This document shows positions 2,969 through 10,828 of a DNA stretch of 10,895 nt, one piece after another (within the stretch, counting starts at the first letter, position 1; each line of letters starts with the position of its first letter). Below the pieces are notes generated by a model, which was not told where the DNA came from, did no database searches, and saw only the letters and a program-made list of their open reading frames with translations. The translations under genes were made by a program, and so were the position numbers. Origin of the DNA: Burkholderiales bacterium (GTDB taxonomy: Bacteria > Pseudomonadota > Gammaproteobacteria > Burkholderiales > Burkholderiaceae_E); NCBI GenBank assembly GCA_020348765.1, contig CP070753.1, positions 2,403,560 through 2,414,454 of the forward strand, given 5' to 3'.

Positions 2969-4966
2969 ATGTCCGATCCCGCCGTCGAAACGCCGAGATC
3001 CGGCTCCACGCTTCCGCCAGGCACGCGCCTGAACGAGTTCGAGATCGTTCGGCTGCTCGCCGCCGGCAGCGTCGGCGGCCTGTACCTGGCCGAGGATCGA
3101 CTGCTCGGGCGACGGGTCGCGATCAAGGAGTTCCTGCCCGAGCAGATCGCGCTGCGTACGGCCGACGGCGAGGTGCGTCCGCGATCCGAATCGACCGCGG
3201 CGGCATTCGACGCCGGGCGGCGCAGCCTGCTGGAGGAAGCGCGCCTGCTGGCACAGGTCGAGCACCCCGCGCTCGTGAGCGTACTGCGCTTCTGGGAAGC
3301 CAACGGCACGGCCTATGTCGTGATGCCCTATTACGAGGGGCAGGTGCTGCGCGAGGCGCTCGCCGCGCAGCCGCACCTGGGCACCGAGCAGTGGCTCAGG
3401 CGGCTGGCGGCCCGGATGCTGGGAGCACTGGCGGCGATGCATGCGGCTGGCGCCGTGCACGGCGACCTGTCTCCCGAGACCGTGTTGATCCTGCCGGGCG
3501 ATCAGCCGATGATCGTCGGACTCGGCGCCACGCGGCGCAAGCTGGCCGAAACGGCCCCCGGTCTGACGGTGATGGTCAAACCGGGCTTCGCGCCGATCGA
3601 ACAGTATGCGACCGATCTGCCGTACGGCCCGTGGTCCGACGTCTACGGCGTGGCCGCGATCCTGTACCTCGGCGTCACCGGCAAGCCGCCGGCGCCGGCG
3701 ATCACCCGCGTCGCCGGCAAGGCGCTGGTGCCGGCCGCCGATTTCGGCCACGCCGGCTTTTCCGCCACCTTCCTCGAGGCGATCGATCGAGGACTGGCCC
3801 TCGAGGGTGCAGACCGGCCGCAGTCGGCACAGGCGCTGCGCGAGTTGCTCGGCATCGACGATGCAACCCGCGGCGACGGCCGGATGGTTACCGGCATCGC
3901 GCCGACCGAATTGCGCGCCGCCGCGGCAGCCGGGACCGACGCAACGCGGCGGACCGCCGGCGAAGCGGCGGAACCGTCGCGCGCGCAAGTGCCGACGGCG
4001 CCGACTGCAGCCGGCGCCGGATCCGAAGCGGCCGCCGCCGAGCCCTCGATTCTCGCAGTGCGGGCGTCTGCCGCCGAACCGGCCCCGGGGCCGGGGGCGG
4101 GGGCAGGAGGCGGCACCGCCGACCGGGACGCGGCTTCCGCTGCGGCCGGCGCCCCGCCAGCGGCGGGCAGTGGTTCGGCTCGGGGCGAACAGGCCACCCA
4201 AGGCGACGCGCTCGCCGCCGTCAGCGACGCCAAGTCGCGACTGCGCGAGCAGCGCAGGCGCGACCCGCAGCGAGCGGCGAGCCGCACGGCGCCGCGGCGG
4301 CGGCTGCCGATGGTCCCGATTGCCGGCGGCCTCGCGGTCGCGCTCCTGATCGCGCTGGTCTGGTTGCTGCTGCAATCTCCGTCGAAAACGGATCAGCCGA
4401 TCGCGCCGTCGCCGGTGACGGGCGACGTATCGCAGCCGCCGCAGGCGGGCGATGCAGCCGCGGCGAAGGCGACCGAGCCATCACCGCAGCCGGACGCTGC
4501 CCCAGCCGCAGCGGCCGGCGCGGGACCGGTCACCGGCGATGGCTCGGCCGCAGTCGGCGGCGCTGCGAGCGGCGGCGGGACCGGGGCAGTGCCGGGCGCT
4601 GCGGCTGGTACCGCCTCCGGTGCCGACTCGGCTCCCGCCGGCGCGGACCGAGCAACCGCGACGGCCGCGCCGAGCCGGCCACGTCCGCCGGCCGGCACTG
4701 CGACGGCCCCGTCGCAGCCGCGCCCCGCGCCGCAACCCGCAGCGCAGCCGGTGCCACCGGCGAGCGGCACGGTGCTGCTGTCGGTCCGACCCTGGGGCGA
4801 GGTTTTCGTCGACGGGCAATCGCGCGGGGTGACGCCACCGCTGAAGCGACTGCCGCTGGCACCTGGCGAGCACGTGATCGAGATCCGCAACCCGGCCGGT
4901 AGCCCCTATCGGCGTACGATCCGCATCGATGCGTCGCAGCAACTGACCCTGACGCATGATTTCTGA
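2969..4966 (+). CDS. T6SS-associated Ser/Thr kinase-like membrane protein with PEGA domain (probable pseudokinase)
   Basis: This 665-residue protein has the layout of T6SS PpkA-type kinases. Residues 22-290 or so are the kinase domain: loop AAGSVGGLYLAED (31-43), VAIKEF with Lys53, helix-C acid Glu89/Glu90, catalytic loop HGDLSPETV (164-172) with Asp166, and PGFAPIEQY (205-213) followed by WSDVYGVAA (222-230). A Pro/Ala linker leads to one membrane span at about 449-469 (PIAGGLAVALLIALVWLLL). An Ala/Pro/Gly-rich extracytoplasmic linker then ends in a PEGA domain at about 602-665 (LLSVRPWGEVFVDGQSRG). Two metal-binding residues are missing. The DFG motif reads Gly184-Leu-Gly, and the catalytic-loop Asn is Thr171. 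The first glycine of the loop is Ala31 or Ala32. Fold and placement are certain; phosphotransfer activity is doubtful. The ATG at 2969 has no clear Shine-Dalgarno site. The TssQ-like gene follows after 30 bases. Confidence 0.9.
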   Translation: MSDPAVETPRSGSTLPPGTRLNEFEIVRLLAAGSVGGLYLAEDRLLGRRVAIKEFLPEQIALRTADGEVRPRSESTAAAFDAGRRSLLEEARLLAQVEHPALVSVLRFWEANGTAYVVMPYYEGQVLREALAAQPHLGTEQWLRRLAARMLGALAAMHAAGAVHGDLSPETVLILPGDQPMIVGLGATRRKLAETAPGLTVMVKPGFAPIEQYATDLPYGPWSDVYGVAAILYLGVTGKPPAPAITRVAGKALVPAADFGHAGFSATFLEAIDRGLALEGADRPQSAQALRELLGIDDATRGDGRMVTGIAPTELRAAAAAGTDATRRTAGEAAEPSRAQVPTAPTAAGAGSEAAAAEPSILAVRASAAEPAPGPGAGAGGGTADRDAASAAAGAPPAAGSGSARGEQATQGDALAAVSDAKSRLREQRRRDPQRAASRTAPRRRLPMVPIAGGLAVALLIALVWLLLQSPSKTDQPIAPSPVTGDVSQPPQAGDAAAAKATEPSPQPDAAPAAAAGAGPVTGDGSAAVGGAASGGGTGAVPGAAAGTASGADSAPAGADRATATAAPSRPRPPAGTATAPSQPRPAPQPAAQPVPPASGTVLLSVRPWGEVFVDGQSRGVTPPLKRLPLAPGEHVIEIRNPAGSPYRRTIRIDASQQLTLTHDF

Positions 4967-4996: not shown

Positions 4997-5506
4997 ATGA
5001 CCGAAACGCGCGCCGAAACCCCACAGACCACGCTCGCCGGCCACTGGCGCAGTCGCTGTCTGATCGGCATTGCGGCCGCGGTCCTGGCGTCGGGCTGCCA
5101 GACGCCGGCGCCCAAGCCGGCACCGCCGCCGGCGGCTCCGCCCAGACCGGCTGCACCTGCGCCCGCTCCAGCTCCTGCCCCGGTACCGCTGACACCGGCG
5201 CAGGTTCGCCTGAAAGTGGGCGCCACGCTGTACGATCGCGGCGACTTCGAGCGAGCGATCCGAAGCCTCGGGTCGGCCGAACCGATATGGCAGAGCAACG
5301 AACCGCTGGTGAAGATCGCCGCGCACAAGCTGATGGCATTCAGCGCCTGCGCGCTGGGCCGGCGCCAGGCCTGTCGCGATGCGTTCGACGCGCTGCTGAA
5401 GATCGATCCCGGCTTCGAGTTGACGCCGGCCGAAGCCGGCCACCCGATCTGGGGACCCATTTTCGTCGAGGCCAAGCAGGCGGCCCGCACCGGGACCGGG
5501 CGCTGA
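4997..5506 (+). CDS. TssQ-like T6SS-associated lipoprotein
   Basis: This 169-residue protein has a lipoprotein signal with lipobox L-A-S-G-C (Cys34) after a hydrophobic stretch LIGIAAAVLASG. A Pro/Ala linker (about 36-68) follows, then a helical TPR-like domain: AQVRLKVGATLYDRGDFERA, IAAHKLMAFSACALGRRQAC, and LKIDPGFELTPAEAGHPIWG (up to about residue 155). The pattern of a repeat helix pair, two Cys around an R-R-Q-A, and a G-H-P-x-W-G-P-x-F ending matches the TssQ family of T6SS lipoproteins as I remember it. The site of action would be the periplasmic face of a membrane. GGAGGG at 4984-4989, seven bases before the ATG, supports the start. The gene follows the kinase by 30 bases and is probably cotranscribed. 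Its role in T6SS is not well defined, so the function is inferred from linkage. Confidence 0.8.
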   Translation: MTETRAETPQTTLAGHWRSRCLIGIAAAVLASGCQTPAPKPAPPPAAPPRPAAPAPAPAPAPVPLTPAQVRLKVGATLYDRGDFERAIRSLGSAEPIWQSNEPLVKIAAHKLMAFSACALGRRQACRDAFDALLKIDPGFELTPAEAGHPIWGPIFVEAKQAARTGTGR

Positions 5507-6390: not shown

Positions 6391-8376
6391 CTATTTCCTG
6401 CCCCGGTCCTCGAGCCGCTCGATCTGCTCTTCGTAGGCACGCGTGAACTCGCGCCAGAACAGCGCTTCGAAGTCATCCTCGGCCTCGCGCGAGATCTCGT
6501 CGAAACGCTCGTTGAACAGTTCCCACAGCCGTGCCTGCCGGTGCAGTGGCACCACGGCATCGATGACCGATTTGCGCGTCAACCGACTCTCGAGCGCCTG
6601 CGGATCGAAGCGCGCGATCAACCCCTGCATCGCGGCGCGCATGCCGGCCACGAACCCGACCTGGTGAGCGAGCAGGTCCTGGTAGGCATCGCGCATCGCA
6701 GCCGTGGGTTCCATGAAACCGCGCAAGGTCTTCGGCGCCAGCAGGTGCGCCAGCGCCGCGACCGCGTTGGGAGAGAACTTGAGCGGGTTGTTGTCGTTGG
6801 CCGCGATGACCGTGACATCGGTCTTCATCTCGCGCTTGAGCGCGGCGCGTGCAGCCAGCAGTTCGAGCGTGCCGTCGACGGCCGCGCGTAGCAACTCGCC
6901 GATGCGTCGCATGGTCTCGGGGCTCAGCGTGCTGACCGCCCCGGCGCCTGCATCGAGCCCCTTCGACAGTTCGGGCAGGCCGGAGCCCAGCAGGAATTGC
7001 CGCAGCAGCTCGGGTGCCGCATCGCCACCGCCGGTCGCGACCCGTTCCTGCGAGGCCCGGCCCGCGGCCTGCGCTGTCTCGCGGTTGAGCGCGTTGAGCA
7101 TCATCGTGGTCTGCGCCGGCGGCGGCGGCGTGAACCGATCCTGATGGGATTCGATGACGCCGCCGACGAGCTCGCGCACCTCGTCCGGTTCGAGGAAGCG
7201 CTGCGGGGCCGGAGCCGGCGGCTGGCTGGGTGCCGGTGCCGGCGCCTGGCTCGGTGCCGGTGCAGCGCCCGCCGGCGGCGGCGCGACCTGATTCGATCGC
7301 CCGGCCGGTTGCCCCGCGCTCTCCCGGCGCAGCGATTGCGTCGGGCTCAGTCCTTCACGGCTCTCCCACGAGCGAAATGCGCCGCCGCCGCCACCGGCCG
7401 CCGGCGGTCCACCTGCAGCCCGGGCAGCGCCGGAAGCAGCCGGCGGCGGCGACGGTGGTCTTCGGGGCTGCGGCACCCGGAAGCTGCCACGCAGCTCCGG
7501 AGTCGTATCCGGCAACGGCGGCGGCGGCGCCGGCCGGCCGGCGGCTCGACCGAGCGCCGCCAACGGATCCTGCGAGTCGGCCGTGTTCGGCTGCGAAAGC
7601 GGCCCGTCGAGCGTTCCACCGAGCTTGTCGAGCGCATCCGTCTTCGCGTCACCACCGAGTCCGAACAGCTGGTCCAGGCTCTCGCCTGGGGCCGACTCCG
7701 CCGGGCGCAAGGCGTCCGTCGACGGGTGCGGCGCGCCCGGTCGGCGCTCGGCGCCGCGCAGGCCGAGTGGATCGCCGGCGCTGGGCTCGGCGGGCGCACC
7801 GGTGTCGCCAGACTCGGCGGGTGCGGGGGCGAACGGGTCGAAGTCCTCCGGGATCAACTCTCCGGCGCCGGACGGCGCCGGCGGCCGCGGAGCCACGCGC
7901 GACGGCGGCTCGACGAACGGAGGGCCGGCCGAAGGCGGCACCAGCCCTGCCAGCGGATCGTCGGTGGCCGGGCTCGGCGCCAGCGAGCGCCAGAACTGGG
8001 TCGCCGGCACCTGCTCGGCCGGCTGCGATGCTTCGGCGCCCGGCGGCGCCAGCGGCTCCGGCTCCGGGTGCAGCTCGACCACCAGTTCGTATTCGCCGAT
8101 CGTCAGCACCTCGCCGTCGGCCAGCACCACCTGCTGGTCGCGGCCGATCTCGGCACCGCCACGCAGGACCCGGCTGCTGCTTCCCCGGTCAGTGAGTACC
8201 CACACGCCACCGACATAGGTCACCTCGGCCTGCAGCCGCGAAATGTGCTTTTACTGGTCCTGCAGCACCAGCGTGCAGTCCGAACCGCGCCCGATCGTTC
8301 CCCCTTGCGGGCCGAAATCCGCGCTGACCGGCGCCTCGGGCGCCTTGCCCATCGCCCTGATGACGCGCACGCGCAC
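6391..8376 (-). pseudogene. tagH: T6SS FHA-domain protein TagH, interrupted by an in-frame TAA
   Basis: The gene most likely starts at GTG 8376, three bases after the PAAR stop, and would encode 661 residues plus one internal stop at codon 42. The FHA domain covers about residues 1-105: VRVRVIRAMGKAPEAP, then GGTIGRGSDCTLVLQDQ, stop, KHISRLQAEV, GGVWVLTDRGSSS and LTIGEYELVVEL. Gly-Arg (29-30) and Ser-Arg in HISR are the usual phosphopeptide-contact residues. A long Pro/Ala/Gly linker runs to about residue 395. The last 190 or so residues match the T6SS FHA C-terminal domain (TagH/ImpI), including NNPLKFSPNAVAALAHLL and GFVAGMRAAMQGLIARFDP. TagH relays kinase and phosphatase signals to T6SS assembly. 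The frame downstream of the TAA stays open for 610 codons from GTG 8223, but that start would delete half the FHA fold. Either a recent nonsense mutation, readthrough or a sequencing error explains it. Confidence 0.85.
8251..8253 (-). other. In-frame TAA stop inside the TagH FHA domain
   Basis: Minus-strand codons read CTG-CAG-GAC-CAG-TAA-AAG-CAC-ATT-TCG-CGG. The frame on both sides matches the FHA fold with no gap, so a single substitution such as CAA or GAA to TAA explains the break. The codons just after it (AAG-CAC-ATT) are unusually A/T-rich for this gene. Confidence 0.9.
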
Positions 8377-10276: not shown

Positions 10277-10828
10277 CTACCCCAGCGGCACTTCGGCCCG
10301 GGCCGCGCCAGCCGCGCCCTGTGACAGCCGCAGCGCGACCTCGGGTGCCAGCGATTCGCACACGAATGCCTCGACCGTGCCGAGCAGCGTGCGCTGCTGC
10401 GCCGGGGTCAGCACCGGGGCGGCCACCCGCAGCACGCGCGGATCGTAGAAGCGGAACAGCATCGGCACCCCGTCCGGCGCCCGGGCGTCCAGCGCCGGTC
10501 GCAGCCGATACACCAGCTCGCGCAGCGTGGATCGCGCCAGCGCATAGGTCGCCCAGGCGCGGCCCCATCCGCCGAGCAGCCAGCGCAACACCTCGGGGTG
10601 GTCGGTCACATCGGCCACGAAAGGCGATCGGCGGAACACCTCGGCCGTCAGGTCGCCGGGCAGCAGGCAGTCGAACGGCAGCGTGTGGTCGGCATAGAAC
10701 CGGGCCGGCAATGCGTCGTTGACCGACGCGTCGGCGAGCGCGAACAGCCGCACGCCGTCGGGCCGGGCGCCCAGGGCCGCTTCGAGTGCCGCGACGCGGG
10801 CCGGATCCGGGGGCGGGATCGCGCTCAC
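10277..10828 (-). CDS. DUF4123 T6SS effector adaptor (Tap/TEC type)
   Basis: The 183 residues match DUF4123, the adaptor/chaperone family that loads specific effectors onto VgrG. Characteristic stretches are VRLFALADASVNDALPARF near residues 26-44, PFDCLLPGDLTAEVFRRSPF, EVLRWLLGGWGRAWATYA, LRELVYRLRPALDARAPDG and VPMLFRFYDPRVLR, the last being the family hallmark. The GTG at 10828 overlaps the TGA of the upstream gene as GTGA. The purine-rich GAGGAAGAG just upstream serves as ribosome-binding site and at the same time encodes the acidic tail of that gene. The gene is followed after six bases by the helper. Adaptor specificity usually tracks with the downstream effector, so the 259-residue protein is its probable client. 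Confidence 0.9.
   Translation of the reverse strand: MSAIPPPDPARVAALEAALGARPDGVRLFALADASVNDALPARFYADHTLPFDCLLPGDLTAEVFRRSPFVADVTDHPEVLRWLLGGWGRAWATYALARSTLRELVYRLRPALDARAPDGVPMLFRFYDPRVLRVAAPVLTPAQQRTLLGTVEAFVCESLAPEVALRLSQGAAGAARAEVPLG

What the first reader, a model, noticed from the sequence alone, without database searches (positions are those of the whole stretch)
8251..8253. Nonsense codon splits the FHA domain of TagH
The frame is continuous and clearly FHA on both sides (LVLQDQ, stop, KHISRLQAEV), and 610 more codons stay open after it with normal codon bias and an intact TagH C-terminal domain. The inactivation must be very recent, an assembly or sequencing error, or the stop is read through or used to make a C-terminal-only TagH. 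Any real loss would uncouple T6SS assembly from phosphorylation.
Basis: partly seen in the sequence, partly recalled or inferred. Interest (0 to 1): 0.75.

Follow-up and report, generated by a model that had tools for sequence, protein, structure and literature searches.

The report
Stop codon in TagH: likely assembly error
A stop codon really is written inside a gene of a bacterial secretion machine, but the same draft genome has stray stops inside other conserved genes, so it is most likely a sequence error rather than biology.

Summary
The TAA at 8251-8253 (minus strand) is present in the sequence and lies inside the FHA domain of a tagH gene: PF00498 matches across it with one stop inside. 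All 119 listed homologues, of 479 hits, keep an FHA domain and a sense codon there.

The source explains it best. The "single contig" genome is a 57%-complete draft whose sampled stretches are short contigs joined by 100-N spacers; the window is exactly one of them. In 1.18 Mb sampled, the scan that finds the TagH stop marks 57 places. I chose 12 other genes by reading; 10 are confirmed as one interrupted family on both sides (parE, an aconitase-type protein and beta-carbonic anhydrase among them), by TAA, TAG and TGA alike. Two genomes of the same family (0.72 Mb) gave 11 places, none read as an interrupted gene. Best reading: consensus base error (0.8); then a real recent nonsense mutation (0.14). 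No reads were available.

One side observation is not explained by rare errors: the kinase-like gene beside tagH (2969-4966) has lost catalytic residues and looks like a pseudokinase.

The parts
8251..8253 (-). in-frame TAA inside the FHA domain of tagH
   Evidence: also marked by the unbiased scan (L019:17810)
8254..8376 (-). tagH upstream piece (41 codons from GTG at 8376), first part of the FHA domain; keeps the conserved R (119 of 119 homologues)
6391..8250 (-). tagH downstream piece: rest of FHA (keeps the conserved S, 119 of 119 homologues), linker, T6SS_FHA_C domain; 619 open codons
8380..8679 (-). PAAR protein gene, upstream neighbour of tagH
   Evidence: PF05488
5537..6304 (-). PppA-like PP2C phosphatase; motifs kept (motif names recalled)
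   Evidence: alignment with 10 relatives
2969..4966 (+). PpkA-like kinase gene, predicted pseudokinase (DFG Asp and catalytic-loop Asn replaced), PEGA-like tail by motif only
4997..5506 (+). TssQ-family T6SS lipoprotein
   Evidence: NF038027
1..1411 (+). DUF4384 protein, cut by the left end of the contig
   Evidence: residues from 131 on were scanned
10277..10828 (-). DUF4123 (T6SS chaperone-type) protein
   Evidence: PF13503

Best explanation
The stop is a base error in the consensus of a low-quality draft contig (or a minority variant caught in it), lying in an otherwise ordinary tagH gene of a Burkholderiales type VI secretion cluster. In the organism the gene is probably intact and TagH works as in known systems: the FHA domain reads phosphothreonine and the C-terminal part serves as assembly scaffold. 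Shown: the stop, the domain on both sides, the nature of the draft, and other interrupted conserved genes. Inferred: the cause, since no reads were available; and the function, from described relatives.
For: (1) The held genome is 57.46% complete and its 20 first-sampled stretches carry 100-N spacers every few kb; spacers lie directly before and after the window. (2) A scan of 1,177,283 non-N bases marks 57 places where coding signal continues in frame across a stop, the TagH stop included. Besides TagH I chose 12 genes (13 of the 57 places) and searched both sides apart: 10 of 12 confirmed, 9 with successive parts of one model (ParE, NiFe hydrogenase, HpnC, SBP_bac_5, BhcA, Aconitase_C, Pro_CA, HpcH_HpaI, MsbA-type ABC), 1 with successive domains (GFO/IDH/MocA); 5 TAG, 4 TAA, 1 TGA. 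(3) The only long ParE match in the draft is the interrupted one. (4) Same scan: 7 places in 399,990 bases of G004 and 4 in 320,000 of G016, all TGA, none read as an interrupted gene; at 10 per 1.18 Mb about 6.1 would be expected, chance of none about 0.002. (5) Homologues: sense codon in 119 of 119.
Against: No reads were seen. The 12 genes were picked by reading the translations; the other 43 of 57 places (26 with ATG and 7 with GTG/TTG within 12 codons, 10 with none) and the 11 control places were judged by reading only, not by profiles. Two of 12 tested genes matched on one side only. Aconitase_C has 6 other matches without a stop in the draft, so that break could be tolerated. Real pseudogenes in one population could look alike. 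A homology comparison with the two controls found no clear interrupted gene, but had only 23 and 14 usable proteins. Two unusual Q codons beside the stop are not expected from sparse independent errors.
Confidence: 0.8

Rival explanations
1. A genuine, recent nonsense mutation in the sampled population: FHA is lost, TagH is either gone or made only as a C-terminal part, and T6SS assembly is no longer tied to threonine phosphorylation.
For: The frame and the conserved FHA residues are otherwise kept. The neighbouring kinase gene has lost DFG Asp and the catalytic-loop Asn and departs at 19 of 62 conserved columns, more than 118 of 119 other rows, as if the phosphorylation branch were under weak selection. 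The TagH C-domain departs at only 1 of 52 columns. FHA departs at 4 of 17, matched by 1 of 119 rows.
Against: The draft carries such stops in conserved genes unrelated to T6SS. The draft also holds a T6SS-type kinase with HRD, Asn and DFG in place on another contig (L055), and P0144, a relative with the same kind of tail, has also lost DFG Asp, so the kinase change is probably older and separate. PppA keeps its motifs.
Confidence: 0.14
2. The stop is real and a C-terminal-only TagH, started downstream, is the functional product.
For: C-domain well conserved. In Serratia, Fha has a phosphorylation-independent essential role (PMC6082577, passages).
Against: All 119 listed homologues keep FHA. 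In Agrobacterium secretion is abolished without a functional FHA domain (PMC3953482, passages). The first possible restart, GTG at 8223, lies inside the FHA domain.
Confidence: 0.04
3. The stop is read as an amino acid (recoding or suppression).
For: 7 of the 8 TAA places in the scan are at TagH or in the 12 genes taken as interrupted.
Against: TAG and TGA interrupt genes as well. 32 TAA, 247 TAG and 704 TGA follow coding frames in the sample, most without in-frame continuation. No TAA-reading anticodon among 10 tRNAs read at 11 Rfam places or 6 tRNA calls in 20 stretches; the draft is incomplete.
Confidence: 0.02

Closest known systems
TagH/Fha of type VI secretion systems (TIGR03354; P. aeruginosa Fha1, A. 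tumefaciens Fha)
   Same: FHA domain followed by linker and T6SS_FHA_C domain; neighbours PppA, PAAR, kinase; conserved Arg and Ser kept, with the same spacing as R30/S46 of A. tumefaciens Fha (PMC3953482, passages; the correspondence is inferred)
   Different: An in-frame TAA inside FHA, in 0 of 119 listed homologues
PpkA, T6SS Ser/Thr kinase (A. citrulli, PMC12607579, passages)
   Same: Kinase domain 43% identical to the Paracidovorax citrulli kinase P0127 over 44% of the query; beside TssQ, pppA and tagH
   Different: DFG Asp (residue 179 in P0127) replaced; the paper reports that only wild-type PpkA, not D161A/D179A mutants, restored killing. That P0127 is that very protein is inferred. 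PEGA-like tail instead of DUF4384
Consensus errors in draft metagenome-assembled genomes
   Same: Isolated stops in conserved genes across one fragmentary draft
   Different: Cause not proved here; no reads. The literature listing was not opened further

Membership tests
TagH (TIGR03354) | C-terminal T6SS_FHA_C / TagH profile | tested here: met
   193.4 bits against cut-off 120.25; PF20232 195.5 bits
TagH (TIGR03354) | N-terminal FHA domain in one open frame with the C-terminal part | tested here: not met
   FHA profile matches above cut-off but with 1 TAA inside; as written the frame is broken
TagH (TIGR03354) | conserved phosphothreonine-binding Arg and Ser of FHA | tested here: met
   R at -12 and S at +4, each in 119 of 119 homologues; binding role recalled and from PMC3953482 passages
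TagH (TIGR03354) | located with T6SS genes | tested here: met
   PAAR, PppA, TssQ, kinase, DUF4123 in the window; a TssM-type gene elsewhere in the draft; TssC family not found in the incomplete draft
PpkA active kinase | HRD Asp, catalytic-loop Asn, DFG Asp, glycine-rich loop | tested here: not met
   Lys53 and HxD Asp166 kept; N171T, D184G, G31A, G34S
Stop-codon recoding | one stop codon used as sense | tested here: not met
   TAA, TAG and TGA all interrupt conserved genes
Stop-codon recoding | matching suppressor tRNA | tested here: inconclusive
   none among the tRNAs read; draft 57% complete
Consensus base error | low or mixed read support at the site | not testable with these tools
   no reads available

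The most novel reading that the evidence does not exclude
The stop is real and fixed: this T6SS has dropped phospho-reading, keeping a C-terminal-only TagH scaffold together with a pseudokinase that serves as a structural partner, a natural separation of the two roles of Fha.
Probability: 0.05. Interest if true: 0.5.

Novelty: not a real feature. Interest (0 to 1): 0.12.

Why it matters
It shows that a single nonsense codon in a draft genome should be weighed against the draft's own load of stops in housekeeping genes before being read as biology. If the stop were real, it would give a natural test of which role of TagH/Fha, phospho-reading or scaffold, can be lost.

Tried and rejected
Recoding of TAA was considered when the interrupted genes in the first sample were mostly TAA; the wider sample showed TAG and TGA too. 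A decayed phosphorylation branch was the leading idea; it weakened when a kinase with all motifs was found on another contig and P0144 proved to be a second kinase without DFG Asp. The first, cruder stop scan gave 11 places in this draft and 0 in G016 and missed the TagH stop; searches replaced it. A homology comparison with the two controls had 23 and 14 usable proteins; its 6 'stops' and 1 frame join were read as spurious antisense frames and were not counted. No frameshift survey of useful power was done. Literature: TagH with 'premature stop' gave 2 papers; passages of one, PMC3697988, show no tagH in the main text, the other was not opened. PpkA with 'PEGA domain' and 'type VI secretion' gave none. 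'pseudokinase' with 'type VI secretion' gave 31; passages of PMC3953482 only were seen and none of those shown used the word.

Full report
What is there. The minus strand carries a DUF4123 protein, small genes without Pfam match, PAAR, tagH and pppA; the plus strand a DUF4384 protein cut by the left end, a peptidoglycan-binding/CHAP-type protein, a kinase-like gene and a TssQ-family lipoprotein. In tagH the codon at 8251-8253 is TAA. FHA reads on both sides and PF00498 scores above its cut-off across it, with one stop inside. Of 479 homologues the best 120 are listed: the draft's own 439-aa product, without FHA, and 119 others, all with PF00498. In the stop column all 119 have a residue.

Where the sequence comes from. 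The genome is held as one 3.02 Mb piece, 57.46% complete. The 20 first-sampled stretches contain spacers of 100 N, mostly every few kilobases, one ending just before the window and one starting just after it. The window is one contig of a fragmentary draft. A genome of the same family, G004, shares its contig with a public Burkholderiales MAG. The TagH cluster has a single member and the next hit is 42% identical, so no close strain could be compared.

Is the stop special? A codon-usage scan of 1,177,283 non-N bases looked for stops flanked by 30 codons of coding signal in the same frame. It gave 57 places (25 TAG, 24 TGA, 8 TAA), the TagH stop among them. Twelve other genes (13 places) looked interrupted on reading; both sides were searched apart with Pfam or NCBIfam. 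Ten of 12 were confirmed: topoisomerase IV subunit B (TAG), a NiFe hydrogenase (TAG), squalene synthase HpnC (TAG), a family-5 solute-binding protein (TAA), aminotransferase BhcA (TAA), an aconitase-type protein (TGA), beta-carbonic anhydrase (TAA), an HpcH/HpaI aldolase (TAG), an MsbA-type ABC transporter (TAA) and a GFO/IDH/MocA oxidoreductase (TAG). Nine have successive parts of one model on the two sides, the oxidoreductase successive domains. A LolB-like gene and a homoserine-dehydrogenase-like frame with two stops 63 bases apart matched on one side only. Of the other 43 places, 26 have ATG and 7 GTG or TTG within 12 codons and read as gene junctions; 10 have none and read as gene ends, spurious or unclear frames; none of the 43 was checked by profile.

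Controls. The same scan gave 7 places in 399,990 bases of G004 and 4 in 320,000 bases of G016, all TGA; 2 of the 11 lack ATG within 12 codons, against 26 of 57 in the draft. I read none as an interrupted gene. At the draft's rate of 10 confirmed per 1.18 Mb, about 6.1 would be expected in the controls, with a chance of 0.002 of none. ParE is normally essential (recalled); its only long match in the draft, from model position 246, is the interrupted one. For the aconitase domain 6 of 7 matches carry no stop, so that break alone proves little. Base errors, or minority variants in the consensus, are the simplest common cause, and the TagH stop fits in.

What remains for a real mutation. The kinase gene in the window has replaced DFG Asp, catalytic-loop Asn and two P-loop glycines, and departs at 19 of 62 conserved columns, more than 118 of 119 other rows. 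Sparse errors would not do that. But among 131 listed kinase proteins, 4 share the PEGA-like tail motif: the window's own, P0144, also without DFG Asp, and P0156 and P0158, which keep DFG; so the loss is probably old and separate. The window kinase's tail was not matched by a Pfam model. The draft also holds a kinase with all three motifs on another contig, followed by a stretch resembling the window's DUF4384 protein and beside a TagF-like frame (both names by reading, no profile run). PppA keeps its expected motifs (motif names recalled).

How it would work. In Agrobacterium, loss of a functional FHA domain abolishes secretion and FHA binds phosphorylated TssL; PpkA activity there is not absolutely required (PMC3953482, passages). 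In Serratia, Fha is needed even where phosphorylation is not (PMC6082577, passages). In A. citrulli, PpkA activity is required (PMC12607579, passages). The tagH here most likely does the same job, the stop being absent in the organism. Odds: 0.8 error, 0.14 real recent nonsense mutation, 0.04 functional C-terminal-only TagH, 0.02 read-through.

Noticed in passing
window 2969-4966 (+): T6SS kinase-like gene with DFG Asp, catalytic-loop Asn and P-loop glycines replaced: a predicted pseudokinase with a PEGA-like tail; P0144 is a second such protein.
   Followed up: partly
L055 (G000 around 1946289-1947155): A second T6SS-type kinase in the draft with HRD, Asn and DFG in place, a DUF4384-like tail and a TagF-like frame beside it.
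   Followed up: partly
whole draft genome G000: Held as a single contig but built of short contigs joined by 100-N spacers, so gene neighbourhoods across spacers mean nothing.
   Followed up: yes
L081:16115, L089:15644, L094:11715, L105:4186, L026:12149, L024:5138, L025:145, L102:19743, L090:3818, L098:15152: In-frame stops inside conserved genes, confirmed by profiles on both sides.
   Followed up: yes
L111:16155-16220: A homoserine-dehydrogenase-like frame with two in-frame stops 63 bases apart; only the upstream piece matched a profile.
   Followed up: partly
window 8254-8265 (-): The residues at -3 and -1 before the stop are both Q, in 0 of 119 homologues: a small cluster of unusual codons beside the stop.
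   Followed up: no
L021:3912-4002, L031:15424-15511: ARAGORN calls two selenocysteine tRNAs (anticodon tca) in the draft.
   Followed up: no
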